The position numbers and the translations under genes were made by a program. A DNA stretch of 64,000 bases from Phlegmacium glaucopus (taxonomy: Eukaryota; Basidiomycota; Agaricomycetes; Agaricales; Cortinariaceae), in the NCBI GenBank assembly GCA_015039465.1, contig MU130361.1, positions 451,212 to 515,211 of the forward strand, read 5' to 3'. Numbering within the stretch: position 1 is the stretch's first letter; every line of letters starts with the position of its first letter. Under the pieces are notes generated by a model. The model worked only from the letters and a program-made list of their open reading frames with translations. It was not told where the DNA came from and did no database searches. Of the stretch, positions 1 through 55,000 are shown one piece after another.

Positions 1-766
1 TGTATCCAAAAGAACAAACACTCTTCCCGAAAGCGCCCGCTACGCTAAACGTGCTTTTAGCCGTGAAACCCTGGTCCGGCCAACCGACTGGTTGCCCTGT
101 GCACTAGGTTTCTGCAAGTCGAAAGTTTAGGCTTTAGACTTCGACTTCTCGGGCTCTTTCAGGACTCGCAGACCTGTTGAGCTAAAAAAACCGTCTACTT
201 ACGGCTTTAAGTTTGGTCGACATGGTCTGTGACTCCCTCGTCCTCCCACCCAACTTTTTTATGAAATTTATGCATCTTATTCTTTAAAAGCGCCGACTTG
301 GAGCAGAGTTCTCTACTTCTGCTACTACGCAGAAGTAGCTACTTTTTTTGAACAACAAACACATTCACTCCTGAACGTACACTTACTAACCAAGACGGCG
401 AGTGCAATAGAATAGGATTCTACTCGGAAAGTCCGAGTAGCGCCTTATTCTATTGACAACGCAAACAAAGGGGTTATTTACAAAGTCCCTCTACTATCAA
501 CTTTCCTCTAAACCTTTAACATAAAGATCTACTGTTCTATTGTATCCAAAAGAACAAACACTCTTCCCGAAAGCGCCCGCTACGCTAAACGTGCTTTTAG
601 CCGTGAAACCCTGGTCCGGCCAACCGACTGGTTGCCCTGTGCACTAGGTTTCTGCAAGTCGAAAGTTTAGGCTTTAGACTTCGACTTCTCGGGCTCTTTC
701 AGGACTCGCAGACCTGTTGAGCTAAAAAAACCGTCTACTTACGGCTTTAAGTTTGGTCGACATGGT
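1..766. repeat. Mirror-reversed repeat, one 540-bp unit plus 226 bp of a second
   Basis: Bases 1-226 and 541-766 are essentially identical direct repeats, so the segment is a 540-bp unit followed by part of a second. Read backwards without complementing, the unit matches the normally oriented repeat at about 3960-4435. For example, backwards from 226 it reads TGGTACAGCTGGTTTGAATT, and 4184 onward reads TGGTACAGCCGGTTTGAATT, with only about one mismatch in the first 77 bases. Backwards from 540 it matches the forward bases 1029-1120. Neither ordinary strand of 1-766 shows this match. No gene is visible. Where mirror sequence gives way to normal sequence, between 767 and 1028, cannot be placed. 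Confidence 0.85.
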
Positions 767-1153
767 TCTGTCTCACCTTGAGTGTTGACCGTCCAACCTA
801 CTCCGTTTCTGCGGTTTGACAGTGGGTTTGCTCAAGTGAGACTCAGGTCTCGGAGAATAAGCGTGCAAAGTACCTAGATTTGTAGTGCCAAGTAAATAGA
901 AATCCTTTGTTTATATTCCTGTCTTTTCGTCTCATTTTACGCTTTCACAATTCGATGTCTTTACGCTCATGCCTTAAAGTTGACAGGTGTCGTCATTATT
1001 CTAAGTTACTTTGCAATACCAGTTACGCTATCTTGTCATCTAGAAATACAATTTCCAAATCTCCTTTCAACTATCATCTCCCTGAAACATTTATTGGGGA
1101 AACAAACGCAACAGTTATCTTATCAACAGAACTTTGTTAGCTTTACTCTCTCG
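767..1153. other. Flank between mirror repeat and ZNF511-like gene
   Basis: No convincing gene. Bases 1029-1120 are a normally oriented partial copy of the repeat that appears mirrored at 441-540. The stretch just below 1154 is the presumed 3' UTR of the minus-strand zinc-finger gene. Confidence 0.5.
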
Positions 1154-2915: not shown

Positions 2916-3035
2916 CAATATTTTTAATTTTTGAATGTTATTGCGGCATCCTTGTTTTGCATGGGGATATCGGGATATTTGATCGACAGGCTGTCCAATA
3001 ATTAATTATATGACTATACCAGTCATTCAGCTTGT

Positions 3036-3746: not shown

Positions 3747-3959
3747 AGTACAGTATTCACCCTACTCCGCTTTCTAAAGAGTTTCAACGCAGCTGTTAAA
3801 TTCTTTCTCGCCGCGCTGAAGTTGCCCGAAATCGTGTTATATCAGGCCACTTAAAAATATCCATGATTGAAACCACACTTCCATTTATAACTTCGCTTTG
3901 CCACTAAGTACACTATTTATGTCCGGAATTCGGAGATGGCTGTCTGGAAGGAGACTTCA

Positions 3960-4435: not shown

Positions 4436-4614
4436 CATCAAAATATAATCTTATTCCCAAAATCGCCATCACCCACATTTATTGGTGGTAAAAACACTTA
4501 TAGTTATCCTATCTAAATTTTGGGCTACTTCTGTCCGGATTGGACTCATGGCCAAAACACCAAAATGCTAAAATTCTGTCCGGATTGGCATACGGCCTTT
4601 TCTGCTATTCCTCC

Positions 4615-13562: not shown

Positions 13563-13816
13563 TTACAGCCGTTTTCATAACGATAGGCCCTGACGTTTCC
13601 TGCCTGTTTAGACCGTGTTTGGCTGTATCGGAAGATCTGGTCCAAAAGAAGTACGAGCCGACGGTCTGCCGTCGATGGGTGAACGTTTGGAAGAATCCGA
13701 TTCCGGACGGCAGACCGTCGGCTCGTACTTCTTTTGGACCAGATCTTTCGATACAGCCAAACACGGTCTAAACAAGCAGGAAACGTCAGGGCCTATCGTT
13801 ATGAAAACGGCTGTAA
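13563..13816. repeat. 111-bp-arm palindrome
   Basis: Left arm 13563-13673 and right arm 13706-13816 are inverted copies with about two mismatches in 111 bp, separated by a 32-bp loop. They would form a very stable cruciform or hairpin RNA. The arms begin TTACAGCCGTTTTCATAACG. No transposase is associated. It lies about 210 bp upstream of the first recognised exon of the thioesterase gene. Confidence 0.85.
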
Positions 13817-21130: not shown

Positions 21131-21373
21131 TTGCATGGCTAAAGTGAGTGGAAAAATGGCAGAGTGGCAGTGTGTACATGGGCAGGTAAATTCATTGGCA
21201 ATGGGTCCGAGTTGGTGAGTAGGTGAGTAGGTAGATTGTTCAACATAGAAACGGTGATATGATTTAAATCTGCATAAGCATGGTTTTTGCAATTTTTATC
21301 TATTATTTCAGCATAAATAATAATTAATGCACCAATAACTGGTTAATACAACTGATAATAAACAAGGGAATCA

Positions 21374-22957
21374 GAGTTGTCTACCCTACAACTGCTGATT
21401 AGACCTATTACTGTGTGACTTAAATGCATATAGTTAATAAGTGTGGTCAATAGACTATCATTTGTTACACTACAAATTGCATGTCTGGATTAAAACCAAT
21501 AAATCCATGAATATCCTTATAGACTTGGCACAGGAAAAGTTAAATAAACAATATTGGGTTAGCAAATGTCATGGGGTGTGATTTTGGAGCAACAGAATAT
21601 TATTAATAAATATTCAGGGGAAGGTTGGTGCCCTAGCAACAGTGGAAGCAGAATAACCAAGATAGTGGAACCATGTGATTGTGTGGGAATCATGATGATT
21701 AAGGATAGGGGGAGTGCTGAACAATCATAAAGATTGTTTCCAGGCACAATAGGCACAGTTACCATCAAGAGGGGTGGAAACTACCTAAAATTAGCAACAT
21801 GGGGCTAAAAATAGAACAACCCCTATGTTTCCAGGAACAATGAGTGCACATGGTGCATTATCTATTTTTAAATATCTCAAATGTATAAAACACCTCCCAG
21901 GGTTTGTAAATAGTCAGAAAATTGGATTCTTTCTTTCCCCCCCTCATTTGCAACCTAGTACAGCTCACTGTCTTAGACATTGAGCAAGAACACTTGTCTT
22001 TGAGTAGTGGACTTGAAAATAAATCAGTTTCTCAGAGTTGTTTGACTTGTTGCAATAATTGTTGAATTGTTGTAAAAGTTGTTGTTGTGTTAAAGTCATA
22101 GCAGAAGCAAGAGGGCTTCTTGTGTATGCAATTGTGTTAAAGTCATAACAGAAGCAAGGGGTCTTCTTGTGTATGCAATTGTGTTGAAGTTGTAACAAAG
22201 TCTTGGACTTTTGTGTACACAAGTTTAAATCAATCAGTAAAGTCTTAGGAATTCTTTGACTGATTGTTGGTGCAAGCCATAAATTGCAAAACCACTTAAA
22301 AGTTTGATCATCCTTGAATTGATCCAAATTATTGTTGTTATTGTGTGTACTAGTTGAAGTGAAATTCAAAGTCTTGGAAAGGTTATACTTTCTAGAAAAC
22401 CCAACTTGCATTATAAGATTGTATAAAGTATTGATTGAGTTATTGTTTTGAGTAGAGATTTTTATAATCTTGAAAATACACCTTTTCTCAACAACCTCTG
22501 TGCAGTTACATCAACGGAAATGTTAGTAAGAACAAATATTTTTAAGCATTAACTGACCTCAAATGTAGGGTCAATACAATCCATCTGCTCCTTCATTTTG
22601 ATGGCTGCCAGTGCCTGCTCTGTGCTCGGAGCGAGGAAGTCCGGGACAATATATTGCTTCCCTTTGTATTCTCTGACTCTGTAACCGCCGTGGAGGCGAG
22701 TGCTTACAGGTTGGCCCTGTGGTCCCTCAATGCTATTGCGAGCAACATCAGCAGGATAGATCTGTTCCATGATGGTATTTGATAAGGACCAAATGTCATG
22801 TGATATAAACAAACATCACATGGTTTCGATGATTTTTGATGATTGCCCATGATGTGGCATGGGAACATTAAATGAAAGTTGAACTTCATCAAGATTTGTC
22901 TTCTCCAACATATATAGATAGCCACACCTTGACTGACACCTGCTTGCTGTTTCATAC
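21374..22957 (-). repeat. 1.58-kb direct repeat, copy 1 (family D LTR-like)
   Basis: Nearly identical to 24798-26395 in the same orientation, differing by small indels and scattered substitutions. It ends abruptly at a 25-base A run. Its minus-strand portion 22812-22549 encodes an unrecognised open segment containing DVARNSIEGPQGQPVST and followed by a possible GTCAGT donor. Confidence 0.75.
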
Positions 22958-22982
22958 AAAAAAAAAAAAAAAAAAAAAAAAA
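22958..22982. repeat. Exact 25-base A run at a junction
   Basis: It separates the 1.58-kb repeat copy from an unrelated gag-protease fragment. In the second repeat copy the sequence continues CATACAACACATGG with no A run. Possibly a gap placeholder. Confidence 0.8.
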
Positions 22983-24772
22983 CTATCGAACTCTCGGAGA
23001 TAATCCGGAACTCCTTCTTTCGTTTCCAATTGTGTGTGGCGCTGGAAAGCTTCCGCAAGACGTTGGGAGATGGTGGAGGTGGCTCGGATATCTGCCTGCA
23101 GTGGTAGTAGGCCAGTGGCAAATATTCTGTCGCCGTCCTCAAATTCAGGGTTTGGGCTACTTTCCTCCTCATCCTCCTCATCACAATCTTCTACATGAGC
23201 CGGAAGTGGGCCGGTCAAACATTTTTCAATTCGGCATATTTCCGCCTTTTGAATTTTTCGTTCTTCTCGGATTTCATTCCTGCATTCCGAACAACAACGG
23301 GGTGGACAGCGGGACATTTTGACTTCTCCAGTTGCCCAGTCAATCTCCGGGTTGTGCATCTTAAGCCAGGAATGTCCGAGAATCAAGGTTTGTTTTCCTA
23401 GTCCAGTAACCGCGAACAAGGATCTCTCGGAGTGTCCTTTATACCTGAGTATCAGATCAACCACTTTCGTGATCGATCCGGCTTCATTTGGGGTACCGTC
23501 AACATTAAATACCGGAATCGGGTTTGACAGGGATTTTGTTGTGAGCCTGTTAGTTTTGACATAGTCTCTGTCAATAAACCTTCCGTCGGCTCCGGAGTCT
23601 ATTAAGGACAGAAAGGAGTTTACTTCTCCAGTGTTGGTCATTTCAATGCTGACTTTGAGTTCCAGTGATTTTGAGTCAGTGTCGAGGGAGCCAATAGTGA
23701 ACTTTTTTGGGAGGGTTCTTTCCCATCGGGGTCGGAACACTCGGATTTTTTTTGGAATTTCTGATGTTTGTACAACTTGAATGTTTTCAACCGTCTCGTC
23801 TATTTCATCAATGCTATCTACATGTAAAACAGAGAACCGGTTGGTTGTTGACAGCGAGGGCGTGCAGTTCACTCGCTGTTTTGGCAAAAATCCTTTAAAT
23901 CCTCGGTCGGACTTTCGTGTTCAGTGTTCTCCGAAGGTTCCGTCGGTTCTGGATCAGGCACTTTGTCATATTCGGCCAGCCGGAACTCCAAGAGGGTATG
24001 GAGTTCGTCATTGGACATTGTTCGGACGTCAAAACGTTTTTCGCAATGTCTCCCGATGTGTCCGACGCCTCCGCACCGGAAGCATGACAGTGGTACAGAG
24101 CCTGCTTTTCGGGCCGTGTCGATATCCATGGGTACAGGGTTTCCCGGAGTTGGCACGAGGTGTGCGTTCCTCTGTGGCGGATTTGACGGACTGAATTGGA
24201 GTGTGGTAGTACCGATTGGTCGAGAAGTGGTTGCTGCCGGACTTTTGTAAGCTGACTGGAAGGCCTCGTTAGTAGCTTGGTTTTTGTCTATTGTCCGTGC
24301 CATTCTGTACCATCCCGTCGGATCTGTATCGGACGGTCTTCCGGAAGCCATTGTAGCAATGGAGTTCTGAATCTGGGCATTCGGGCCTCTTCGGAATTTT
24401 ACTACAATAGTTTTTGGATTGGTGTATCCTGAATCCGTGATTAGGTCTTGGAATTCGTCCACATATTCTTCCAAAGACTGTGTTTTCTGGAAATATCCAG
24501 TTGACTCTAGTCGGTTAATGGCAACCGAGTCCGCATTTGCGGGACAGAACTCTTTTTTGAAGTCGTCTCGGAAATCAGACCAATCCAGGAACCGGGTTGA
24601 CTCAGGGTTTTCCGTTTCCCATCAGAAAACTCTGGCTGCCCACTTTGATGCTCTTCCGGATTTCATGTAGGACATGGCCCAGATGATTTTTGTTTGCTCG
24701 TCCGAGAATTCGTCGGAACAGAGCCGGATGTACGTTTGGCAGGAGTGAAGGAATGCTGTTCCTTTGGATCGT
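22983..24772 (-). pseudogene. Ty3/gypsy gag and protease fragment
   Basis: On the minus strand the gag frame (about 24770-23869) carries LEEYVDEFQDLITDSGYTNP and a CCHC zinc knuckle, CFRCGGVGHIGRHC. One TGA interrupts it near 24620. A second frame (23887-22983) carries the aspartic-protease motif LIDSGADGRFID and LILGHSWLKMHNPEIDW, a usual Ty3/gypsy order. Reverse transcriptase, RNase H and integrase are absent. The fragment is cut off on both sides by 25-base A runs, so it may be a contig placed between gaps rather than a true insertion. Confidence 0.8.
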
Positions 24773-24797
24773 AAAAAAAAAAAAAAAAAAAAAAAAA
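24773..24797. repeat. Exact 25-base A run at a junction
   Basis: It separates the gag fragment from the second 1.58-kb repeat copy. The corresponding place in copy 1 (near 21374) reads CAGAGTTGTC with no A run. Confidence 0.8.
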
Positions 24798-26395
24798 GTT
24801 GTCTACCCTACAACTGCTGATTAGACCTATTACTGTGTGACTTAAATGCATATAGTTAATAAGTGTGGTCAATAGACTATCATTTGTTACACTACAAATT
24901 GCATGTCTGGATTAAAAACCAATAAATCCATGAATATTCTTATAGACTTGGCACAGGAAAAGTTAAATAAACAATATTGGGTTAGCAAATGTCATGGGGT
25001 GTGATTGTGGAGCAACAGAATATTATTAATAAATATTCAGGGGAAGGTTGGTGCCCGAGCAACAGTGGAAGCAGAATAACCAAGATAGTGGAACCATGTG
25101 ATTGTGTGTGGGAATCATGATGATTAAGGATAGGGGGAGTGCTGAACAATCATAAAGATTGTTTCCAGGCACAATAGGCACAGTTACCATCAAGAGGGGT
25201 GGAAACTACCTAAAATTAGCAACATGGGGCTAAAAATAGAACAACCCCTATGTTTCCAGGAACAATGAGTGCACATGGTGCATTATCTATTTTTAAATAT
25301 CTCAAATGTATAAAACACCTCCCAGGGTTTGTAAATAGTCAGAAAATTGGATTCTTTCTTTCCCCCCCTCATTTGCAACCTAGTACAGCTCACTGTCTTA
25401 GACATTGAGCAAGAACACTTGTCTTTGAGTAGTGGACTTGAAAATAAATCAGTTTCTCAGAGTTGTTTGACTTGTTGCAATAATTGTTGAATTGTTGTAA
25501 AAGTTGTTGTTGTGTTAAAGTCATAGCAGAAGTGGTTGAGCTTCTTGTCTTCTGTGTATGCAATTGTGTTGAAGTCATAACAGAAGCAAGGGGTCTTCTT
25601 GTGTATGCAATTGTGTTGAAGTTGTAACAAAGTCTTGGACTTTTGTGTACACAAGTTTTAAATCAATCAGTAAAGTCTTAGGAATTCTTTGACTGATTGT
25701 TGGTGCAAGCCATAAATTGCAAAGCTACTTAAAAGTTTGATCATCCTTGAATTGATCCAAATTATTGTTGTTGTTGTGTGTACTAGTTAGAAGTGAAATT
25801 CAAAGTCTTGGAAAGGTTATACTTTCTAGAAAACCCAACTTGCATTATTAAGATTGTATAAAGTATTGATTGAGTTATTGTTTTGAGTAGAGATTTTTAT
25901 AATCTTGAAAATACACCTTTTCTCAACAACCTCTGTGCAGTTACATCAACGGAAATGTTAGTAAGAACAAATATTTTTAAGCATTAACTGACCTCAAATG
26001 TAGGGTCAATACAATCCATCTGCTCCTTCATTTTGATGGCTGCCAGTGCCTGCTCTGTGCTCAGAGCGAGGAAGTCCGGGACAATATATTGCTTCCCTTT
26101 GTATTCTCTGACTCTGTAACTGCGGTGGAGGCAAGTGCTTACAGGTTGGCCCTGTGGTCCCTCAATGCTATTGCGAGCAACATCAGCAGGATAGATCTGT
26201 TCCATGATGGTATTTGATAAGGACTGAATGTCATGTGATATAAACAAACATCACATGGTTTCGGTGATTTTCAATGATTGCCCATGATGTGGCATGGGAA
26301 CATTAAATGAAAGTTGAACTTCATCAAGATTTGTCTTCTCCAACATATATAGATAGCCACACCTTGACTGACACCTGCTTGCTGTTTCATACAAC
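24798..26395 (-). repeat. 1.58-kb direct repeat, copy 2 (family D LTR-like)
   Basis: Second copy of 21374-22957. Unlike copy 1 it continues past the shared end into unique sequence with minus-strand open segments of unknown family (about 26251-26523). Confidence 0.75.
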
Positions 26396-26670
26396 ACATG
26401 GCCAACATGACACCTACCAAAATTTGTGAAGCATTGGTTGGCTGCAATGACCAAGTCCGGCTGGGAGTAGAAGAAGGCAGTATTCACACTACAATGCAGC
26501 ACATTGGCTGCAGACTGGTACAACAGGCAGCTTGGAATAAGTACAAATACTAACTATGAACCCAGAGGGATATCTTTGCATTACAATCAAGTGATGCAAA
26601 TTGAGGAGCCTTCTATGGACATTTATATCTATACAGTTTCCTAAGGTCTTGGAACCAGCAGGAAGAACAA

Positions 26671-30120: not shown

Positions 30121-30480
30121 TATAAATCATTGTTTGTGTTGTTATATAACACCAACCAGAGAGCAATGGACTAGTCTTTAAGTCAAAAGCCTCCCTGTTG
30201 TTTGTTTAGGGAAGGTATAACCTAGACTTGTGTAGGGGGAAAGAATAGAGATGAGGAAGGATGAGGATGAAGATCTTGGAAGGTGACTGAGGTAGAGGAT
30301 GAGGATGAGGATGAATAAGAGAGAGTCTTCAGTAAGACTATAGAAGTAGACAGTATGGGACAGTAACAGATAAAAGGCTGAAAAAGCGAACTTGAGGGAG
30401 GAATTCACATTTACTTTACCCTCCCTGGGTTAATCCATATGGAATGGATGGAATCCATATGGATTCCATAAAATAAAGGG

Positions 30481-30575
30481 TGGATTCCATGGAATATACA
30501 GATGGAATCCATGAAATAGGGATGGATTCCATGGAATATACAGATGGAATCCATGAAATAGGGATGGATTCCATG
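30481..30575. repeat. 42-bp minisatellite, about 2.3 copies
   Basis: The unit contains GGATTCCATGGAATATACAG plus its near-complement GGAATCCATGAAATAGGG. The same sequence recurs at 34195-34370. Part of the composite element's left end. Confidence 0.75.
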
Positions 30576-30579
30576 TTGT

Positions 30580-30960
30580 TACATGTTACGTGTTGTATGT
30601 TGTTTGCTGTTTGGCCCATGTTGCATGTTGCATACTTGTTGTTTGGTCCATGCTGTAGGTTTGTTGTATACTACTTGGTCCATGTTGTATGTTTGTTGTA
30701 TGCTGCTTGGTGGGTGTTTGGTGTTTGCTGCGTGTTGTGTGCTACATGGTCCGTGCTGTTTGGTCCATGCTGTTTGGTCCATGCTGCATCTTGTTTGCTG
30801 TTTGTTACATGTTGCTGCATGTTGGCGCTTGGTGTGTATGTTACACATATTGGTGCTGCTTTTGGTGGTTACTGTGCAGGTTCGCTCCGTATGTTGGTGA
30901 TTACTGCTGCTTGCCGTACATGTTGCTGCTGCTGAGACTGGTGTTGGGGGGTCGGTCGTG
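30580..30960. repeat. G/T-rich simple sequence
   Basis: Strand-asymmetric tract of TTG, TGTTG and GGTCCATG variants. Long open frames on both strands here are compositional artefacts. Confidence 0.6.
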
Positions 30961-31201
30961 AAAAGTAAAATAAAATTATCCATTTCTACTAACGTTTGGG
31001 GGGAGGAGGGGTGAACCCCAAAAGTAAAATAAAATACGATACTAATAAGTGTGACCGTCGTTAGGGGGTCCCATAACATAAAATAAAATGATAAAATTAT
31101 CCTAACAATAATCATAATTATATTATACCTTATTTATTATATTTATAATGGTACTTTTTTGGAATTGTTGTTGACTTACTTTATTTTATCTTATAATTGG
31201 A

Positions 31202-31465
31202 CCAGGTATACCTTAGGTAGGAACCTAAGGTACCTTATATGTCTACCTTAGGTAGGGACATAAGGTACCTTGTCCATACCTTAGGTAGGGATATAAGGTA
31301 CCTTAGGTAGGGATAAGGTACCTAAGGTAGACATATAAGGTACCTTAGGTAGGGATAAAGTACCTAAGGTAGACATATAAGGTACCTTAGGTAGGGATAA
31401 AGTACCTAAGGTAGACATATAAGGTACCTTAGGTAGGGATAAAGTACCTAAGGTAGACATATAAG
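31202..31465. repeat. 42-bp tandem repeat of GGTACCTTAGGTAGG type
   Basis: At least three near-perfect units of 42 bp (unit includes GGTACCTTAGGTAGGGATAA then GTACCTAAGGTAGAC), preceded by shorter variants. Each unit is partly self-complementary. The array runs directly into a 27-base A run. Confidence 0.85.
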
Positions 31466-31492
31466 AAAAAAAAAAAAAAAAAAAAAAAAAAA
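31466..31492. repeat. 27-base A run at a junction
   Basis: Separates the minisatellite from the mirror-reversed helicase segment. Confidence 0.8.
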
Positions 31493-32030
31493 CATATGAT
31501 GTAAGTGACAAGAAGGAGGACTGAGAAGAAAATCATCATGGAAATTAGCCAAAGGACTACATGTAGATCTATCAGGATGTATGTTAACGGGTACACTTTT
31601 TTGACCTCTGGCATTTAGATTAGGATGTACGAAGTTACTGACGGGAACTGAGAACAAGTGACAGTATCGTTTACGTTCAGTTTAACCTTTAACAGCAGCA
31701 GCTTCACCTTAGCGGTTTAGGAGACGTCTACCACTGTTACATTAGGCACCTTATTTGTGATGAAAAGGTCGTTTAACAAGTAGAGGTGAGTACTAAGATG
31801 TAAAATCGTGAGAAGGAGACTAAAGGTCATGGGAATTGGAACAGGGTAACGTTTCAGGAAAGCTTCGTAGGTTTAAAGCTTCGTCGTATTGACCTGTAGG
31901 TTGAAAGTCAAATTCTACACGTTCACCTTCACTTGAACTCTGGTTACTTAAGTCTATGAGACCTCTTATACCGACGTTTAGTAAGTAGGGAAGTAGGAGA
32001 AATACTTACTGGATTGCAATTGTAATGATA
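31493..32030. other. PIF1-helicase coding sequence in mirror (reversed, uncomplemented) order
   Basis: None of the six normal frames gives a recognisable protein. Reading bases from about 32030 down to 31493 without complementing gives one long frame containing YSPEYLNSLVSSSLPL, LKLKVGCPVMLLRNLDASKG, LCNGTRLRVLEIRGRV, LRRRQFPI, AFAMTVNKSQGQSL and LYVGLSRCTSGNRLKV. These are the ordered C-terminal motifs of PIF1/Helitron helicases. Only one stop (TGA, probably from CGA) interrupts about 160 codons. Farther up there is an intron-like stretch ending TTAG. The segment abuts the 27-base A run. Its right end could extend to about 32100. Confidence 0.9.
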
Positions 32031-32099
32031 AGATTTGTTGATTCTATTTTTCAATAAGAGTGTTCACTGTTAGGATATAAGACTGAGTCCACTGTTGTG

Positions 32100-32350
32100 A
32101 TGCAGCCAGGGGTCCAGGGGGTGGAGCCCCCGGCAAGCCCTGAATCTGTGCTGGAGGTCAGAAAAGCGGAGCGGCGCCGTGCCGAAGGCACGGGTTCACG
32201 GCTTGTTTATTTCCAATGCCAGGATCCAGCCAGAATGGTCAGGATTTATTTCTGATGCTATGACCAGTAATTACCACCAGTAATGACCCCAGGTTCCAGG
32301 ACACACATAAGAGGCAAAGGAAAGCATTCACTGGCAGGTGTATAAACAAC
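32100..32350. other. GC-richer stretch, no gene
   Basis: Contains GGGGTCCAGGGGGTGGAGCC and a GCCGTGCCGAAGGCACGG hairpin. No coding evidence. Confidence 0.35.
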
Positions 32351-33712: not shown

Positions 33713-34195
33713 AAAACACCAACCAGAGGGAACTGGACCAGACTTTAGGTCAGAATATCCCCCTGTGTTCGTTTAGGGAAGGTATAACCAGAGACTAGTA
33801 AGCACACTTGGTTAGAAGAGAGTAGAGGAGGGTGAGGATGAAGATCTTGGAAGGTGACTGAGGTAGAGGATGAGGATGAGGATGGGTAAGAAAGAGTCTT
33901 CAGTAAGACTAGCAGTAGACAGTATAGGACAGTAACAGATAAAAGGCTGAAAAAGCAAACTTGAGGGAGGAATTCACTGGAACTCCACTGAGATGATGAC
34001 TGTTGGGGAGTAAGAATGAATTGAGGTGAACTACCTATCCTGGTACAAAAGAGCAGTATTTATACCCTAAGGGATGAGGCTATGTAGAAGAAAAGAACAA
34101 TGGAAAAGAAGAAGGAACAATAAAAAAATCTGTAAAGTGTCAAAGTGCGAGAGAAAAGAAAAGAAGGCAGTGTACATAGTCCAATAGCAAAAATA
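33713..34195 (-). repeat. Family C LTR-like repeat, truncated copy
   Basis: Starts TGTTATAAAACACCAACC and follows copy A up to CAATAGCAAAAATA, where it meets the CCATGGAATATACAG minisatellite. Confidence 0.55.
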
Positions 34196-34639
34196 GATGG
34201 ATTCCATGGAATATACAGATGGAATCCATGAATAGGGATGGATTCCATGGAATATACAGATGTAAAAGATGCCATCATGGAATATGCAGATTGGAATTCC
34301 TTACCTATTATGGAATACAGGGATGGATTCCATCTGTATATTCCATGGAATCCAAGGATGGATTCCATATGGACCAGGTTAATATTCTATTTTATTTCAT
34401 TCAGTTGTTGTTAAGGTTTTTTCATGGTAATATTTATATTATTTATTCCATATTATATTAATACTAATAACAATCCTATTAAAATAGTAAAATAAAATAC
34501 AATACCCTGGGGGATTGCTGCCAGTGTGAATAATCATAGCATAAAATGAAATGAAAACCCCAAGTGGGGAGGAGGGGGGTTTGCAATCATCTTTACCTAT
34601 TAAAATAAAATGAAAAGTGCTGGCTGGGGGGTTGTGGTC

Positions 34640-35110
34640 AGAGTCGTCGTCGTTGTACATGCCGTTCGTCGTCATTAGTGGTTGTATGCCTCGCTTGGAC
34701 GTGTCATTGGTGGTTTTCGTCGTGGTTATACACATTGTATGTGTGGTTCGCGGTTGTACGTCGTTGTACATTGTTTGTCGTTTGTTCTACGTCGTACCTG
34801 GTTTGTCGTACCTGGTTTGTCGTGCCTGGTACATCGTGTGTTGTGCGTCGTTTGTGGTTTGTGGGTGGTTCGTCGTATGTTGTTTGTATGTTGTACCTGG
34901 TTCATCATATGTTGTTTGGATGTCGTACCTGGTTTGTTGTTCATACGTTGTACGTTGTACCCGGTTTGTCGTTTGTTGTATGTTGTGCATTGTACATTGT
35001 TTGTGGTTTGTGGGTGGTTTGTTGTACATTGTTTGTACGTCGTACCTGGTTTGTGGTTTGTGGTTTGTGTTTGTTGTTATTGTATGTTGTACATCACCTA
35101 TTGTAATGTG
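34640..35110. repeat. G/T-rich simple sequence (GTCGTACCTGGTTT units)
   Basis: Irregular repeats of GTACCTGGTTTGTCGT and TTGTTTGT. Open frames on both strands are compositional. Confidence 0.6.
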
Positions 35111-35612
35111 TAAGTAGTGAAATAGATTAGAATAAAAAAAAACCCCCCCTGATGAGGGGGGGATACCATTGTTACGCGTTTGTCGATGTTCTTGTTTGTC
35201 TTCGTCGTCGTCGTCATTTGTGTTGGTTTGTGTTCTTTTGTGTTATTGTGTCGTATGCCTATTATATCGTGTTATTAGTGAAATAGATGAGAAAAAAAAA
35301 CAAAAAAACCCCTGTGAGGGGATTACCGTTGTTGTAGTCATCGTCGTCATCATCCTTGTGCTGGGGTCGTCCTTGTGCTGGGGTCGTCATGTGTTGTTGT
35401 TGTTTGTTGACGTCCATCATCTCAGTTGGAACGAGTGAGGGATGGTGGTGGCGATGGTGGGAGATGGTAAAGGTGGTGATGGTGATGGTGATGGTGACAG
35501 TGATGGTGATGGTGGCAAAGGGTATAAGTTACTATAATGGACAGCGTGAAAAAGGCATGTCACGAGCTTTGGGCTGTGACAGGTTAATTAGATATTATTT
35601 TTCCTAATATGA

Positions 35613-35814: not shown

Positions 35815-37032
35815 CCATCATGGATATACCTTAATCCATGTGGAATGATGATGGACTCCCTATGGAATAGATATTATGGAATCCATATGGAATCCACATG
35901 GAATGATGATGGACTCCATATGGAACATGACCATTCCATGGCCATTCCATATGGAATCCATGGTGTCTATGGAATGAGAAAATAGCTGGTGCCTCAGCCA
36001 AAAGTCATTCCATATGGATTAACCCGGGGAGTGTAAAGACCTCGAATTCACTGGAACTCCACTGAGATGATGACTGTAGGGGACTAAGAATGAATTGGGG
36101 GAAAACTACCTATCCTGGTACAAAAGAGCAGTATTTACCCCCTAAGGATGAGGCTATGTAGAACAATAAAAAAGAAAGAAGTACGCGCTGTCAAAGGAAG
36201 AAAGATAAAGAGAGGACAGCTGCAAGAAGAAAAGAACAATGGAAAAGAAGAAGGAACAATAAAAAAATCTGTAAAGTGTCAAAGTGCGAGAGAAAAGAAG
36301 AGAAGGCAGTGTACATAATCCAATAGCAAAAATATATTAACTCTATAGGCATGTGGTCATGTCAAAAATGTGAAAGGTCCCGAGTCAACACTTGAAAGGC
36401 GCAGCCTTGTTCCTGAGAAAATACTACTTGCCCATGATCCCATGTCATGCAGCCTTGATAACACTTGACACACTGAGAATAATCCTCTGCTGCTGATTCA
36501 TCTGCAACTCCTGCTTAGTTGTGATCCTCCTGGACTTCCTAAATTGTCATAAAGAGGGTTGGAAGGCTTCAGGTACTGCATAAATGATGGTTTTGGCAGT
36601 GAATGATAAGATAAGAGGTAGATAATTGAGGATAAGGGACTGAGTGAGATCCAGGAGTGAGGTATGGCAAGATAGATAGCTGATGTAGGGACTAGCATGG
36701 TCACAACCGGTAACAACCAGTGTGACAACCACGGTTCAACCAAATACGGTATGGTACGGTACGGTTTCTATGGTTCCTGGAACTACCATACTAATTTAGG
36801 TAGCTCAGGGTCCACATAGGGTTCACGGTGGGCTGCAACTTTGTTGCCCTCATTGTGGACCCAATACTGGACCAATTTCTTTAAAATTAGGTGCATTAGA
36901 GCAGTACTTTTCTGTCCCCCACCAGATCTGATCAGATCTGATCAGAATTGTTATATCTGACCAGTTCTGCTCAGATCTGCTCAGATTCTGCTTGGATTCT
37001 GAGTGGATCCAAGTGGATCTGAGAAAATAGAG

Positions 37033-37057
37033 AAAAAAAAAAAAAAAAAAAAAAAAA
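37033..37057. repeat. Exact 25-base A run at a junction
   Basis: Lies between the inner end of the palindrome's left arm and the transposase fragment. The related copy at 41235-41265 has ordinary sequence at this place. Confidence 0.8.
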
Positions 37058-37071
37058 TGATTGCAAAACAG

Positions 37072-37737
37072 GATGGTTCAAGGAGCATTTGAAATATTCA
37101 GCTGCAGAAATCAAGAGGATCAAAACAATAGTTGTTAAGACATGGAAGTCAAAATATGCACCCCAGGATCAGCCAGAGAGCTCACAGGTTCAGAAGAAGG
37201 ACAAGAGTCGCAAACGCACAGATTCAGCAGAAGGACAAGAGTCACAAAGGGAAATTGGTACATCTCAGCTCTTGATCATATTGTTACCTTTAACTCACAT
37301 CACCTAGGAGTTTTCAAAGTGGGCAACCAACCCTGATCAAGCACAGAAGAAACATGGATATGATTATATTGAAACCTACCTCAGTGAGCCCACACCTACC
37401 AAAGAATCTATTACTGCAGCTGGTGGTTATCTCAATTACTGGGCCACTGCTCTCAAGACATGCCATTCAGTTGCTCAGATGGCACTGGACTACATTTCTG
37501 CACCTGGTATTTCTAATTTTATCTTCATGATTTTATCTAACCATATATACATCAACATCTGTGGATGCAGAACATGCATTTTCAACTGGTCGTCGCCAAG
37601 TAAACTTCATGCAACATAATATGAGTTCTCAGACCTTCCAATCACAAATGGCTGTTGGTTCATGGGTTAAAACACCCCTGAACCCTGGCCTCTCCAAAAT
37701 TTCTAAAATTATTGCTGATCAACATCACTCAAAGTAA
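37072..37737 (+). pseudogene. hAT transposase C-terminal fragment, copy 1
   Basis: Encodes WFKEHLKYSAAEIKRIKT, then WATNPDQAQKKHGYDYIE and GGYLNYWATALKTCHSVAQM. After an apparent intron from 37507 comes TSVDAEHAFSTGRRQVNFMQ and SSQTFQSQMAVGSW, the hAT C-terminal dimerisation signature. The intron acceptor that reads TATATACAG in the second copy is TATATACAT here, so splicing is probably lost. The N-terminal catalytic region is absent. Confidence 0.8.
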
Positions 37738-37971
37738 TGTAGAAAAATAATGTAGTTCACACAAATTTGTACAACTCTAACTTGTTGATGGTCATTTAAA
37801 TTCTATTTCACATTTCATTCCCAATTTATGTGTGTTGTCCTGATCAAACACTCTCTAATGGAGGTCTTTGCTGTAAGCCACCTAATCTGATCAGATCTGA
37901 GCAGATTTGGCAGGCATTCTGAGCAGATCTGCTCAGATGGTCAGATCTGAGCAGAATGGAAACTATATACC

Positions 37972-38066
37972 TCCCTAACCTTAATAAAACCCTAACCAAA
38001 CCTTAACCCAAACCTTAACCAAACCTTAACCAAACCTTAACCAAACTACTTAACCAAACCTTAACA
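37972..38066. repeat. Telomere-like CCTTAACCAAA repeat
   Basis: About eight irregular units of CCTTAACCAAA with CCCTAACC variants. It resembles, but is not, the canonical TTAGGG array. Confidence 0.7.
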
Positions 38067-38679
38067 CTCAGAAGTAGCTAGTAGGTCTCTATTTTCTCAG
38101 ATCCACTTGAATCCACTCAGAATCTAAGCAGATCTGAGCAGATCTGGTCAGATATAACAATTCTGATCAGATCTGATCAGATCTGGTGGAACAGAAAAGT
38201 ACTGCATCAATGCTCATCATATGTGTGTCGGGGATCAGAAAAGTACTGCTCTAATGCACCTAATTTTAAAGAAATTGGTCCAGTATTGGGTCCACAATGA
38301 GGGCAACAAAGTTGCAGCCCACCGTGAACCCTATGTGGACCCTGAGCTACCTAAATTAGTATGGTAGTTCCAGGAACCATAGAAACCGTACCGTACCATA
38401 CCGTATTTGGTTGAACCGTGGTTGTCACACTGGTTGTTACCGGTTGTGACCATGCTAGTCCCTACATCAGCTATCTATCTTGCCATACCTCGCTCCTGGA
38501 TCTCACTCAGTCCCCTATCCTCAATTATCTACCTCTTATCTTATCATTCACTGCCAAAACCATCATTCATGCGGTACCTGAAGCCTTCCCACCCTCTTTA
38601 TGACAATTTAGGAAGTCCAGGAGGATCACGACTAAGCAGGAATTGCAGATGAATCAGCAGCAGAGGATTATTCTCGCAG

Positions 38680-39440
38680 TGTGTCAAGTGTTATCAAGGC
38701 TGCGCGACATGGGATCATGGGCAAGTAGTATTTTCTCGGGAACAAGGCTGCGCCTTTCAAGTGTTGACTCAGGACCTTTCACATTTTTGACATGACCACA
38801 TGCCTATGGAGTTGATATATTTTTGCTATTGGACTATGTACACTGCCTTCCTTTCTTTTCTCTCGCACTTTGACACATTACAGATTATTTTACTGTTCCT
38901 TTTCTTTTCCATTGTTCTTTTCTTCTCGCAGCTGTCCTCTCTTCATCATTCTTCCTTTGACAGCGCATACTTCTTTCTTTTTTATTGTTTTACATAGCCT
39001 CATCCTTAGGGTATAAATACTGCTCTTTTGTACCAGGATAGGTAGTTCAGTTCAATTCATTCTTACCCCCTAACAATCATCATCTCAGTGGAATTCCAGT
39101 GAATTCCTTCCTCAAGTTCGCTTTTTTCTGCCTTTAACTGTCAATCTATCCCCACTGTCAATTACTATAGTCTTGCTGAAGACTCCCTCTTATTCTTCCT
39201 CATCCTCTTCCTTAACCCCTCTGAGTTCGCTTTTTCAGTCCTTTACTGTCAACCCACTGTCAACTGCTATAGTCTTACTGAAGACTCTTCCTCATTCATC
39301 CTCATCCTTCTCATCTCTATTCTCACCCCCTACCTCTGTGTGATACAAGTCTAAGGTTATACCTTCCCTAAACGAACAGCAGGGAGGCTTTTGACTTAAA
39401 GACTAGTCCATTGCTCTCTGGTTGGTGTTTATATACAACA
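38680..39440 (+). repeat. Family C LTR-like repeat, inverted copy
   Basis: From TGTCAAGTGTTATCAAGGC to the GGTTGGTGTTTATATACAAC end. On this strand GGTATAAATACTGCTC is the TATA-like element. It forms most of the palindrome's right arm and extends beyond it, and is followed at 39465 by another truncated copy in the opposite direction. Confidence 0.55.
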
Positions 39441-39464
39441 ACAACAACGATTTATAGCATGTGG

Positions 39465-40205
39465 TCATGTCAAAAATGTGAAAGGTCCTGAGTCAACACT
39501 TGAAAGGTGCAGCCTTGTTCCCGTAGTATTTTTGAGAAAATACTACTTGCCCATGATCCCATGTCATGCAGCCTTGATAACACTTGACACACTGCAAGAA
39601 TAATCCTCTGCTGCTGATTCATCTGCAATTCCTGCTTAGTCATGATCCTCCTGGACTTCCTAAGTTGTCATAAAGCGGGTGGGAAGGCTTCATGTACCAC
39701 ATGAATGATGGTTTTGGCAGTGAATGATAAGATAAGAGGTAGGTAATTGAGGATAGGGGACTGAGTGTGATCCAAGAGCGAGGGATGGCAAGATAGATGG
39801 CTGAAGCAAAAACTTGTGGGTCCATAGCCACAACAACAATGACAAAGCCTCTGACATAATGGGAGATGTGGCTGATGTGTCCATAAAGAGGCTGTTCTTG
39901 AAATGATGGACCAAAGATACGATCAAACACAAGCCGATGACTGATGCGAATAGTAGATTGATTGCTTTGCTGGATCACTAGCCAAGGAACAAATGGATGG
40001 TAGATGCTTAGGAGCATGTCAATAGTGTAAACAATAGACAGCATAGTGTGAGACATTGCAAATAAGATGAGCAATGAGGACAATATCGTTGAACGAATGA
40101 TTTGTTGACCAGGAATGCGATTCAGGGCCGCTTCCAAAATAGGTAAGTGAATTCAAAGTCCACTTATTTTCATGATGGCAACTTTTAAGCTTTCTTCTCA
40201 TGCTA
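39465..40205 (-). repeat. Family C fragment with internal flank
   Basis: Begins GCATGTGGTCATGTCAAAAATG and runs through CACTGCAAGAATAATCC into the internal block seen at 28893-29520. No intact gene. Confidence 0.5.
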
Positions 40206-40589
40206 CCAATCAGTATTGGTGTGCGATACCATGCCTGTGCCCGCAGGCACCCATGGTACCAACCCGTATGGGTTTGTAAACCCATGACATTCCCTAGTAA
40301 CAACCGGTGTGATGACTGCGGTTCAACCAAATGCGGTATGGTACGGTATGGTTTCCATGGTTCCTGGAACTACCATACTAATTTAGGTAGCTCAGGGTCC
40401 ACATAGGGTTCACAGTGGGCTGCAACTTTGTTGCCCTCATTGTGGACCCAATACTGGACCAATTTCTTTAAAATTAGGTGCATTAGAGAGTGTTTGATCA
40501 GGACAACACACATAAATTGAGAATGAAATGTGAAATAGAATTTAAATGACCATAAACGAGTTAGAGTTGTACAAATTTGTGTGAACTAC

Positions 40590-41275
40590 TTCATTTTTCT
40601 ACATTACTTTGAGTGATGTTGATTAGCAATAATTTTGGAAATTTTGGAGAGGCCAGGGTTCAGGGGTGTTTTAACCCATGAACCAACAGCCATTTGTGAT
40701 TGGAAGGTCTGAGAACTCATATTATGTTGCATGAAGTTTACTTGGCAATGACCAGTTGAAAATGCATGTTCTGCATCCACAGATGTTGCTGTATATATGG
40801 TTAGATAAAATCATGAAGATAAAATTAGAAATACCAGGTGCAGAAATGTAGTCCAGTGCCATCTGAGCAACTGAAGGGCATGTCTTGAGAGCAGTGGCCC
40901 AGTAATTGAGATAACCACCAGCTGCAGTAATAGATTCTTTGGTAGGTGTGGGCTCACTGAGGTAGGTTTCAATATGATCATATCCATGTTTCTTCTGTGC
41001 TTGATCAGGATTGGTTGCCCACTTTGAAAACTCCTAGGTGATGTGAGTTGAAGGTAACAATATGATCAAGAGCTGAAATATACCAATTTCCCTTTGCGAC
41101 TCTTGTCCTTCTTCTGAACCTGTGAGCTCTCTGGCTGATCATGGGGTGCATATTTTGACTTCCATGCCTTCACAACTATTGTTTTGATCCTCTTGATTTC
41201 TGCAGCTGAATATTTGAAATGCTCCTTGAACCATCCTGTTTTGTGATCAGGACACATAACTATGACATTCAAATT
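40590..41275 (-). pseudogene. hAT transposase C-terminal fragment, copy 2
   Basis: Minus-strand homologue of 37072-37737 with the intron acceptor (TATATACAG) intact, restoring the junction P-A-TSVDAEHAF. It also retains KYSAAEIKRIKTIVVKAWKS. It is truncated upstream and not flanked by both hAT ends. Confidence 0.75.
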
Positions 41276-47645: not shown

Positions 47646-47798
47646 ACAGCAAGAAACATGCAATGGACACAACATAAGGTTATCATTGATTCCATTCCCC
47701 CTTTTTCCCAGTCAACAGCCTACAGGAGACTTGAGCTATAGATTTACCTATCATCTTACTATTCAAGTTGAGTATATACTGCAAAACTTTGTATGTTA

Positions 47799-48215
47799 CA
47801 CTGCTGCGGTGGGACTATTTTGTAGCTATCCAAAATCCAATCCAAATGTGCAAAATTTTATAAATATATTTTGATTTTCACAAAAAGAAACCATAATTTT
47901 ATCTTTTGTATAAAACAAAATTGCTCCAAAATTGAACATATCGGCATCCTATTGTTTTTTAAAAAATCATTTCCAAAATGTCACCACTTTCTATATAAGT
48001 TAAATTTTATTGACTTATATAGAAAGTGGTGACATTTTGCAAATGATTTTCAAAAAAACAATAGGATGCCGATATGTTCAATTTTGGGAGCAATTGTGTT
48101 TTATACAAAAGATAAAATTATGGTTTCTTTTTGTGAAAATCAAAATATATTTATAAAATTTTGCATATTTGGATCGGATTTTGGATGGCTACAAAATAGT
48201 CCCACCGCAGCAGTG
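47799..48215. mobile_element. 417-bp fold-back MITE with CACTG ends
   Basis: Nearly the whole element is one palindrome with arms of about 200 bp, beginning CACTGCTGCGGTGGGAC and ending with its complement. It is flanked by TTA on both sides (47796-47798 and 48216-48218). The CACTG termini with a 3-bp duplication fit CACTA/EnSpm-type (or possibly PIF-Harbinger) elements. Confidence 0.8.
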
Positions 48216-48739
48216 TTATAACCTTCACAACTAATGATGAGCATGGTGGATTCAGTGGTCCCAGTGGCCATTGGAGATTGCATTATTTGGCAGGTGGCAA
48301 CATGGGGAGATTGGTGGTGGTGTAAAAGTTGGAAGCTTACGAGGGAAGCAGGACAGGAACAACTTTGAAACACTTGAAGAATATAGGTGGCAGCTATGTA
48401 TAGTGACAATGCGGCTGTGCATCATTTTTGGCTAATGTATTCAGGTACACCAAAACCCTGCAGTCCCATGGGAGGTGCAGGTCCACTGCCTAAATACAGG
48501 CCTTTGGCTAATTTAGAGTGGAGGAGGGGCATATGCCAGGGCACCCAGGTGAAGGAGGGGAGGGGGAAAGAAAGGGCTGGATAAGGGGCAGGCTAGCACT
48601 GTGGGGGGGGCCAAGCAAGGGAACTTGATTTGTGATCAAACCCTGGTTGCCTAATGTGGCCATGATCCAGCTAAACCTGTGTAAATTGTTTGACATAAGT
48701 AAATATATTACTTAAATGTTTGCCTTGGGATATAGTGGT

Positions 48740-50904: not shown

Positions 50905-52057
50905 CAAGTTTCCGAGTTTCCTGGTTTTTGTCAGTTTTTGTCAGTTTTTTGGGTTCAGAAACCGGTAAAAACTAAAATGCAGGATTACTGATGCCCTGTG
51001 TGGCCCAGAAAAAATCTTGCATATTTTATACATATATTATATATTCTTGATATTTCGTAGTACTACCTCAGTCCATCATTTCGAGACTGAGGTCCCCTTG
51101 CAGTTCTGAGTCTTCTGACTTCCTCTCATCACGTGATCAAATGAATACCGTCTTCCTCAGTTGTCACAATCCTATTAACACTGAGGTACGTATTGTATCG
51201 TACAAACCTAAGAGTTAAATACATGGAATGTCATCTAAGTTAATATAAAGTTGTCACCCCTATTGACACTGAGTATCTTACGTTGTACGACGTCTAGGTT
51301 ACCATGCAAGTCACCTGATAAATACTGATGAGGAGCTGATGATCTCACAGCTCGAGCTGGCAATTCAGCTGAGGGTTGGGATCCTGCACTTAATCCCTCT
51401 CATTGGTCTAGAATATTTAGCTAGCTACTGTAGTAAGCCGATTTTGCATTTTTTTTTAAGTGTTGCTGTTCCCACGTTCCCACGCCATAAAATGATGGAC
51501 TCTGAGGTTCACGGCCAAATGTTTGGCATTGTTATGTCGATCAGGGTTATGTATTCCTGAGGTTCGCAGCAGCAGTGATCTGTTCAGTTGTGCAGCCATC
51601 AAGCTCATATTTTACCCCAGATATCCTCTCTGTACCTCCTTGTATATTCCATCTGCTGTTTTTATACCACGAACAACCGGATTTTCTCAATTTCGCGAAA
51701 TAAACTTTGTATCTTTATCTCGCCGACAGTGGCCTCGAATATTCACTTCCTAGCAACTTCCTAGTCCAGAACTCGTTAATCGCCTTTGTTCATTGGACCG
51801 ATCTGTTTTTTTGCAATCGCTCTCCAATAACGCTTGCCATTTCACCAGACTGGTCGGCAGCATCTCGCAAGCGTTTTTTCTTTTTCGCACCGACCTGCAG
51901 GGTTAATACATTTCTGACATTCTGCTAGAGCAGTCGTGGATAATACATAATTTTAATACCACTTGGTAAGTGAACATACTTCATGCTATGATTCACCATA
52001 CTTAGACTTTGTAGCATACTCCGCATTTGTACCATCGGAACTTATACAATCTGAGCA
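50905..52057. other. Boundary between transposon island and gene block
   Basis: No repeat family recognised after about 51060 and no supported gene. The right part should hold the promoter and 5' UTR of the Ras GEF gene. Confidence 0.4.
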
Positions 52058-55000
52058 ATGCACTCTCGCCTTGCAGTCGACACCACCATTGGGATGACCG
52101 CTGGTCCATCATCTGTTAAATCTCACTTCCGAAAGCGGAGCGACCCCCCTTCAAATTTGGCAGGTCCTAGCAATGTAGTTCGACGGGGTCGTAGTAATTC
52201 CAATGCATCTACCTCGTCTTCATTGTCTATAGTCTCTCCGGCTGCCTCCTCAACAAATGCTTCCACAACCTCCCTTACCCTACCGCCTGCAAGAAGCAGG
52301 CGCCACTCGCGTTCTGAGAGCCCCGCCATCGAGGAAGCCGTCCGACTTGGTCCCGAATATGTTCTCGCCATGCATGATTATTTTCCTCAACATCAGAGCG
52401 CCACTTGTCTTTCGTTTCGCGCAGGACAGGTCATTCATGTTTTAAACAGAGATTCGAGTGGCTGGTGGGATGGCGAACTTGAAGGGCGGCGAGGATGGTT
52501 TCCTAGTAATTACGTCAACGCCGAAATAACATCACTCACGGAAGAGGAACCCTTGGGCATGCAACCGGTGAGTTTTTTCCCATGGTCAAATGAACGCGAT
52601 GTTCTAAATGTTAAGCAGTCCAAGCGTGGACATATATACAGTCCATCCACCGGGTCGGCAACTTCATGGGCTACAATTTCTTCCAGGAACCATACCACCC
52701 AACATGATCACGGACACGATCAATCATCCGATTCAATAGAAGATATGGACCCTTATTGTCCACCGATAATGATACCACTCTTACATGGTCTCTCCCTTCT
52801 CCAGAATGCTGTACAAGCGAGTCGTGTGACACATTTTCAACCCTCTACAGCATGTATTATTTCGTGTGTCCGTTCCATCCTCGCCGCAACAGGGACTCTA
52901 CAACGGGATGCCCCTATATTACAGCGTTTCGCCGTGTTGACAGATGAGCGCAGACGGATACTGACTATCCTCGCTTCACTCGTCGCACAAGCCAAAAAGG
53001 CGTCTGAAGGAAATTTGGAAGTAGGTGCACGGGAAGTAGAAGTGGAAAATATGCTACGGCTTGGGGGCCAGGTTTTCTCTCATGTACGAACGTTTCTGGG
53101 GGTTGCTGTCAAATGCGGTATAGAACTACCAGAAGAACAAAATTCGCCTCGGACAGCTACTCCTGGTATCGAAAATTTCCGAAATTATGGTGAAGATAAA
53201 CCTTCACCGACGCTTACACCTACTCCACGTCGAGGGCGGAATCTAGATGACATCGTAGCCAGACCAGGAATGCGTATTATCGGACCTCGGTCACGAGAAG
53301 GACCTGATCCTATAAACAGTCCAAACTTGTCTAGATCCCTTGCTCGTGCGAGGCAAGAGCAACATCTTCTAAGGGGCGGAATGGCCGGTCGACATAAAAC
53401 TGGAACTTCCATCAGTAGTGTCTCTTCCACATCGTCATTCTCGTCACAGGATTCCACGTCCCCACCCCCCTTCCCTTGCGGGCCTTCCACTGCGGCACAA
53501 GTTATGGAAGCTTTACGCTTCACTCACGATCACTATCTCTCTACCATTGCGGCTTTCATTGGCCATGCACACTCGCATTCTCGAACTTCTCACGCATCCA
53601 GTACTGGCGTCTTGTACGACCTCGTGAAGGAAATTGTAGAGATGGTTTGTAAACTGCTCACTATCGTGGAGGCGGTCATGCAACATCCTGACGTCCCAGG
53701 GCACAGAGTAGGAGACTTGAAATCAGCTAAGGAAGGCCTATACAACGTTACGAGCTCATTGGCTGAGTCGGTGCGGCTTCTGACGCTCTCCTTACCCCCT
53801 ACCATGTCGGAAGAGGCAGAAAAACAAATTTTACTGCGATCTGCGACTGGAGCCTTGAAAGCTGGAGCTGATTGTGTGGCAGCAGTTAAAGTCTGTCTGA
53901 ACCGTTCGCTGGGCGATAGACCATTCATCGTCAATCTGCCGGATGTTGACAATGTCATGGCCCAGCCTTTCACCTCATCCAAACAAGAACAGGACCAGAA
54001 TGCTGCGAGCTTAAACAATGCTAAGAACGTCCATCTTTCGAATGGGATGGAGGATGAAGATCTGACTATACAAGCTCAGACACCACCATCCTTTCGAAAA
54101 CGAGAGATTTCTTCAGGATCTGACAATAGTAGCTTGTCAAAGTCATCTTGGGTTCCTTCGGACGAGACACACATTACTGCTCCTGAGGAACGCAAACCCG
54201 TCGCCCCCATTGCCATATCTGACGCAAAAGTTGAACGCGATTTTCCCTCTCCGAATTCCATTGATCAAACGGAGGATGACGGGAGTAACTATCCGGGAGA
54301 GAAGATCATTCAAGGAGAACCACCCCTTGTACCTCTTGAACCAATCCCGGAATATAACCAGGATCCTTCTGCTTGGATGCTTGGTCATGATTATTCGCTG
54401 GAAGATGTTGCTTATAATAACGAAGGTCATCTTGTTGGTGCCACCATGCAAGCTCTAGTCGAAAAGATGACTCCTCACGATAGCATTGTAGACCCTGCCT
54501 TTTCAGCTGTCTTCTTCCTGACATTCCGATTGTTTTCATCTCCGTCGGATCTGTTGGATACCATCATATCGCGATATAACCTACTACCCCCACCTAATAT
54601 TTCAAATGAGGATCTGCATCTCTGGCAACAGCGAAAGGGCATTCCGGTGCGACTACGAGTGTCTAATTTTATTAAGATGTGGGTCGAGTTCCACTGGCGA
54701 GCGGGAGTTGATGATGTTGCTCTATCAGCATTGACGACATTTACTCGTGACGGACTGGCGATTCTCTTCCAAGGCCCAGCTCAACGGATACTGGACCTTG
54801 TTAACATGCGCAAGCAATCGTCTGACCTTATAAGTCTCAAAGCTGACCGCAGTCGTGACCCCGGGATGTCTATCAATCCACCGATGTCTCCAACGCCTAC
54901 GAGTGAAATACCCCGACCCACGATGACGAAAACTCTCCTCGTTTCTCTCAGGAAGAAAGATTTCGGGAATATCTCTGTTACTGACTTTGACGCACTGGAG

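What the first reader, a model, noticed from the sequence alone, without database searches (positions are those of the whole stretch)
31493..32030. Helicase gene written in mirror order (reversed, not complemented)
Reading this segment backwards without complementing yields about 160 codons of a PIF1/Helitron helicase C-terminus with the correct order of motifs (LKVGCPVMLLRNLD, NGTRLRVLE, RRRQFPI, MTVNKSQGQSL, LYVGLSRCTSGNR) and only one stop. Neither real strand encodes it. Chance cannot explain a long, ordered family match. No known inversion, transposition or repair process makes parallel-reversed DNA, so either the record holds a handling error (complement or reverse applied alone) or this is something new. 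The first is far more likely, but it would corrupt any annotation here.
Basis: seen in the sequence. Interest (0 to 1): 0.95.

Follow-up and report, generated by a model that had tools for sequence, protein, structure and literature searches.

The report
Assembly gap edges written backwards
A piece of a mushroom genome record really is spelled backwards without being complemented, but it lies at an assembly join, and the same fault recurs at other joins of that genome, so it is very probably a genome-assembly error and not new biology.

Summary
Read backwards without complementing, about 31491-31997 encodes a Pif1-type helicase C-terminus (Pif1_2B E=2.3e-15). The same DNA exists in normal order elsewhere in the genome, five times almost whole at 94-98%.

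Layout: normal to 30575; mirrored 30576-31465; a 25-A spacer; mirrored 31491-31997; normal from 31998. Turning each piece round in place restores a 42-bp tandem phase (100% against 19%) and a gapless 709-bp match to a normal copy. Window 1-1028 is mirrored too and abuts an N run.

Runs of exactly 25 A occur 157 times on one strand and once on the other; runs of exactly 23 A once on each: a machine-made spacer. Of 7 mirrored helicase places, 6 touch an N run or this spacer; beside the seventh, mirrored sequence reaches an N run 1.8 kb away. Other genes are mirrored at spacers. Gap-free sequence showed no mirror match.

Best explanation: a gap-patching step wrote some gap-edge fills reversed but not complemented. 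PBJelly resembles it but is not proven. Mirror DNA in the organism: under 1%.

The parts
1..1028 (.). mirrored (reversed, not complemented) tract in place, abutting an N run that ends just before the window
   Evidence: N run ends at C129:451211; mirror matches 3-448 to 3964-4407 (83%) and 529-771 to 4180-4426 (87%); a 540-bp tandem period is restored to 100% of 95 bases only with the junction after 1028, next best 45% among junctions 900-1199, as given 17%; composition bins 1-500 and 501-1000 mirror-like, but bin 1001-1500, mostly outside the tract, is too
30576..31465 (.). mirrored tract of 890 bases, left of the spacer; holds a mirrored 42-bp tandem array
   Evidence: 30576-31401 is the mirror of 34191-35001 at 96% over 828 columns; the other order is the one found elsewhere; 42-bp phase across 30575/30576 is 100% when reverted, 19% as given
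31466..31490 (+). A spacer at an assembly join; the run reads as 27 A (31466-31492), 25 of them spacer if the right tract starts at 31491
   Evidence: exact A25 runs 157 on + and 1 on - strand, exact A23 1 and 1; reverted alignments: tract 31490-31998 scores 1216 bits (24 A left), 31491-31997 scores 1214 bits (25 A left)
31491..31997 (.). mirrored tract of about 507 bases, right of the spacer: C-terminus of a Pif1-type helicase in mirror order
31998..32211 (+). normal-order continuation of the same repeat; the mirrored tract joins here
   Evidence: matches L009 2009-2222 at 96.7% in normal order
34191..35001 (+). normal-order partner of 30576-31401, used to orient the left tract
22958..22982 (+). 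25-A run of the spacer kind; flanks not mirror-like by composition
24773..24797 (+). 25-A run of the spacer kind; flanks not mirror-like by composition
37033..37057 (+). 25-A run of the spacer kind; flanks not mirror-like by composition except one 300-bp bin 900-1200 bases to the right

Best explanation
The mirrored segment is an error of genome assembly. A gap between two scaffolded contigs was patched from both edges. The two extensions (890 and about 507 bases) did not meet, so a fixed-length spacer was put between them, and both extensions were written into the record reversed but not complemented. Shown here: reversal in place, position at joins, the fixed-length spacer, and recurrence. 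Inferred: that the reversed stretch is the fill added by a gap-patching program, and that the fault is a missing complement step for fills built on one strand. The source DNA is an ordinary Pif1/Helitron-type helicase gene and its neighbouring repeats in a mushroom.
For: Normal-order copies of the same exon, five almost whole at 94-98%. Reverting each piece in place gives a gapless 709-bp match at 98% to a normal copy and restores tandem phase from 19% to 100%, and likewise at 1-1028. Of 7 mirrored helicase places, 6 touch an N run or the A spacer: C129, C171:857380, C145:202491, C132:272346, C171:232300, C145:797929; at the seventh, C171:1336498-1336851, mirrored sequence at 1337454-1338687 runs up to an N run. 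Exact A25 runs 157 against 1 by strand, exact A23 1 and 1. Six junctions could be placed, near L009 positions 1636, 1840, 2003, 2009, 2034 and 2037. Mirrored pieces align to normal copies without gaps over 236 to 2036 bases, so they are good sequence simply turned round. Edges of two other spacers encode a reverse transcriptase (RVT_2 6.5e-46) and ankyrin repeats (6.8e-48) in mirror reading; the real strands of the first have no open frame of 75 codons, and the longest normal frames of the second reach no Pfam cut-off. Mirror-only bases fall from 852 in the first 250 bp beside spacers to 0 beyond 1250 bp; 51.5 kb of interior window and 20 gap-free loci gave no mirror match.
Against: Only a minority of spacer edges are mirrored: 4 of the 22 edges with any match, of 60 examined. 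The spacer is A, not N, although N runs exist. The gapless matches are better than I would expect of lightly corrected long-read fill. Four of the six placed junctions lie within 35 bases of each other, two only 3 apart. In four of the other loci some bases between mirrored match and junction or N run could not be assigned (271 in C171:232k, 602 in C171:1336k; 866 in C171:857k and about 550 in C145:202k lie beyond the fetched reference). A composition model gave bin 30501-31000, mostly mirrored, a normal score, and bins 1001-1500 and 34501-35500, judged normal, a mirror-like one. The tool's N can also mean a withheld stretch, so N runs are not proven gaps. Raw reads were not available.
Confidence: 0.97

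Rival explanations
1. DNA in the living fungus really holds parallel-reversed segments, made by an unknown copying process.
For: The mirrored sequence is real in the record and recurs in several loci.
Against: Six of 7 mirrored helicase places touch an N run or machine-made spacer and the seventh is followed by mirrored sequence that does; 117 kb of gap-free sequence gave no mirror match within itself. No known polymerase or repair step makes such a product (established knowledge).
Confidence: 0.005
2. A mirrored mobile element arose once and then spread by transposition, so the copies share an ancestor.
For: Several mirrored copies at 97-99% identity to normal ones; four of six placed junctions lie within 35 bases.
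Against: Tracts are reversed in place within an otherwise normal copy, no two of the six placed junctions coincide exactly, and the tracts lead to an N run or spacer. Tandem arrays, ankyrin and reverse-transcriptase sequence are mirrored too.
Confidence: 0.003
3. A fault introduced after assembly, when the record was converted or copied for storage, rather than by gap patching.
For: The A's instead of N's suggest a later conversion step; I could not see the original deposit.
Against: A file-wide conversion would not pick out stretches beside gaps and spacers only.
Confidence: 0.02
4. Chance open frame or a degenerate repeat that reads as a helicase backwards.
For: None beyond the low complexity of some neighbouring repeats.
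Against: Pif1_2B 2.3e-15 and five normal-order DNA copies at 94-98% over 505-506 bases.
Confidence: 0.001

Closest known systems
PBJelly gap patching with overfilled or inflated gaps (PMC3504050; gapFinisher paper PMC6733440; passages seen of both)
   Same: Gap flanks are extended from both sides; extensions may not overlap (overfilled gaps); short gaps are set to exactly 25 bases. Hybrid fungal genomes from JGI were patched with it (PMC7550596, passage).
   Different: The spacer here is A, not N; reversal without complementing is not described in the passages I saw; this assembly's own methods are unknown.
Pif1/Helitron-type helicases
   Same: The mirror reading is an ordinary member: Pif1_2B domain, best relative 87% identical.
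   Different: Only the written order differs, as far as tested; the rest of a Helitron was not looked for.
Biological inversions and inverted repeats (recalled)
   Same: A segment turned round in place.
   Different: A biological inversion gives the reverse complement; this is the plain reverse.

Membership tests
Pif1/Helitron helicase gene (mirror reading) | Pif1 2B domain and C-terminal helicase motifs in order | tested here: met
   PF21530 E=2.3e-15; 7049 of 7148 scored candidates match
Pif1/Helitron helicase gene (mirror reading) | Rep/HUH nuclease domain and Helitron ends in the same element | not tested
PBJelly-type gap patch | spacer of exactly 25 bases | tested here: met
   exact A25 157 on + and 1 on -; exact A23 1 and 1. 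For this particular run 24 or 25
PBJelly-type gap patch | spacer made of N (the paper's gaps are runs of N) | tested here: not met
   the spacer is A; so it is not filed as PBJelly output
PBJelly-type gap patch | non-overlapping extensions on both sides of the gap | tested here: met
   890 and about 507 bases on the two sides of the A run, taking the reversed pieces to be the extensions
PBJelly-type gap patch | hybrid short-read plus PacBio assembly | not testable with these tools
Biological parallel reversal | mirrored tracts away from assembly joins | tested here: not met
   0 mirror matches within 117 kb of gap-free sequence: 51.5 kb of window, 20 loci; the seven helicase tracts lead to joins

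The most novel reading that the evidence does not exclude
A systematic software fault, not described in the papers I could search, writes gap-edge fills reversed but not complemented, and mirrored tracts of roughly 0.2-3 kb sit beside gaps in other public assemblies made with the same pipeline, where they corrupt repeat libraries and gene models.
Probability: 0.4. Interest if true: 0.45.

Novelty: not a real feature. Interest (0 to 1): 0.2.

Why it matters
It tests a striking claim (parallel-reversed DNA) directly and finds an ordinary cause, and it shows a class of error that annotation and alignment do not notice by themselves, because mirrored DNA matches nothing. Anyone using this genome should distrust tracts beside N runs and A25 spacers. 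A simple screen, the reversed assembly against itself, would find the fault in other records.

Tried and rejected
A mirrored transposon family: rejected, no two of the six placed junctions coincide exactly and the tracts lead to a gap or spacer. Took 34191-35001 as possibly the mirrored member because of its CG-rich, mirror-like composition: rejected, because its order is shared by three other long copies and a 130-bp one, while the other order has one 77-bp match, in a locus that itself holds an A25 spacer. Composition is therefore only supporting: 10 of 128 bins of 500 bases were negative, four of them mostly inside mirrored tracts. Of ten mirror frames printed I sent six to Pfam; two matched, those of L054, L053, L043 and L049 did not. 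A first survey had two loci with mirrored pieces (L067, L068) in its reference; I repeated it without them: again 4 of 22 edges mirrored, and only the normal-order counts beyond 750 bp changed. Named the organism only as a relative of Crassisporium and Galerina, by a RasGEF frame at 76% and 72%; no assembly name found ('259 scaffolds' + genome + agaric; '60.5 Mb' + PBJelly + fungus: 0 papers each). Searches for the fault itself listed nothing that by title or start of abstract describes reversed, uncomplemented gap fill; most listed papers I saw only in the listing. I saw passages of PMC3504050, PMC4580222, PMC8848313, PMC6733440 and PMC7550596, none in full.

Full report
What was checked. The piece matches Pif1_2B_dom at E=2.3e-15; 7049 of 7148 scored candidates of the protein collection match, best 87% identity. 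It is not chance.

Normal copies exist. The window is C129:451212-515211 of a 60.5-Mb genome in 259 contigs. The reversed DNA finds 13 places in normal order; five cover 505-506 of 506 bases at 94-98%. The unreversed DNA finds 27 matches: 7, the window's own included, cover parts of the mirrored piece, and 20 match only within query bases 506-608, which are ordinary DNA. The tool calls such counts lower bounds.

The reversal is in place. In the normal copies the helicase exon is followed directly by what stands at 31998 onward in the window. Turning the right piece round in place gives one gapless alignment of 708-709 bases at 98% to the copy at C23 (L009); as given, only the 214 bases to the right align. 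On the left, 30576-31401 is the mirror of 34191-35001 (96%, 828 columns). The order of 34390-35001 is found in three other long copies and a 130-bp one, that of 30576-31200 only in one 77-bp match. Turning 30576-31465 round restores the 42-bp tandem array across the junction: 100% of straddling positions agree, against 19% as given. Between the two mirrored pieces is a run of 27 A (31466-31492). Two alignments place the right tract's start at 31490 (1216 bits, 24 A left over) or 31491 (1214 bits, 25 A left over); I take 25 because of what follows.

The A25 run is man-made. Runs of exactly 25 A occur 157 times on the + strand and once on the - strand; runs of exactly 23 A occur once on each. 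A natural run would favour neither strand nor one length. The window holds four A runs of 25, 25, 27 and 25, and no other A or T run of 13 or more.

The fault recurs. Window 1-1028 is mirrored: the bases just before the window are N, and a 540-bp tandem repeat is restored to 100% (95 bases) only when the junction is set after 1028. Of the six other mirrored helicase places, five touch an N run: C171:857380, C145:202491, C132:272346, C171:232300 and C145:797929. The sixth, C171:1336498-1336851, lies 1.8 kb from an N run, and the stretch beside that N run, 1337454-1338687, is mirrored too. Six junctions could be placed, near L009 positions 1636, 1840, 2003, 2009, 2034 and 2037: none identical, though four lie within 35 bases. 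Mirrored pieces align to normal copies with no gap over 236 to 2036 bases, like normal copies among themselves (0 or 1 gap opening).

Other families. Of 30 spacer loci (the first 30 of the 158 found; 60 edges) compared with 117 kb of gap-free sequence, 22 edges had any match and 4 of these had mirror matches: left of L043, L045 and L046, right of L064. The left edge of L046 is normal far from the spacer and mirrored near it. By distance from the spacer, mirror-only against normal-only bases per 250-bp bin were 852/1524, 892/2029, 866/1977, 500/1412, 99/1211, 0/1050 and 0/2. As controls, the 51.5 kb of interior window sequence and the 20 gap-free loci of the reference, reversed, had no match of 60 bases or more to that reference. 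I had left out of the reference the loci with N runs or A runs of 25 or more, window 1-4500, 21301-26500, 30401-32000 and 36901-38100, and eight loci by hand (L001, L007, L021, L023, L065, L067, L068, L069). The mirror reading right of L064 is a reverse transcriptase (RVT_2, 6.5e-46) and that right of L036 ankyrin repeats (6.8e-48); four other mirror frames sent had no match. The longest normal frames right of L036 reach no Pfam cut-off.

Results against. Most spacer edges with a match are in normal order (18 of 22 purely so). A composition model trained on the window misjudged 30501-31000, 1001-1500 and 34501-35500. The spacer is A where N would be expected. In four loci some bases between the mirrored match and the junction or N run stay unassigned. 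N in this tool may also mean a withheld stretch, though N boundaries that coincide with mirrored tracts make ordinary gaps more likely.

Mechanism. A gap-patching step extended contig ends into gaps, left an N run or a fixed 25-base spacer where the extensions did not meet, and wrote some extensions reversed without complementing. PBJelly works in this way in part: it extends gap flanks, flags gaps whose two extensions do not overlap as overfilled (PMC3504050, passages), and inflates short gaps to exactly 25 bp (PMC6733440, passage). JGI used it to patch hybrid fungal assemblies (PMC7550596, passage). The A's do not fit, so I name it as the nearest kind (about even odds, a judgement), not as the culprit.

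Organism. The RasGEF frame at 52055-55369 is closest among named proteins to Crassisporium funariophilum (76%) and Galerina marginata (72%), so this is an agaric mushroom; the placement in Agaricales is recalled.

Noticed in passing
21375-26394: Two 97.8% direct repeats (21375-22959, 24797-26394) each end on an A25 spacer and enclose a frame (22955-23920, -) with a weak retroviral-protease match just below Pfam's cut-off: perhaps an LTR element whose internal part is joined by spacers.
   Followed up: partly
36044-41249: Repeats in direct and inverted copies around the A25 spacer at 37033-37057; its flanks look normal-order by composition.
   Followed up: partly
47798-48216: A stretch that is its own reverse complement at 94.6% (423 columns): a long palindromic repeat.
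   Followed up: no
13563-13816: A stretch that is its own reverse complement at 90% (257 columns).
   Followed up: no
L047:1-386 and 2639-3027: The two ends of this spacer locus relate as plain complements in the same left-right order (86%), as if one arm of an inverted repeat were mirrored; not resolved.
   Followed up: no
L005:1709-1979: 271 bases between the mirrored helicase piece and the normal junction match neither order of the three reference copies used.
   Followed up: no
31466-31490 and the other A25 runs: The spacer is made of A while true N runs exist in the same genome; no reason found.
   Followed up: no
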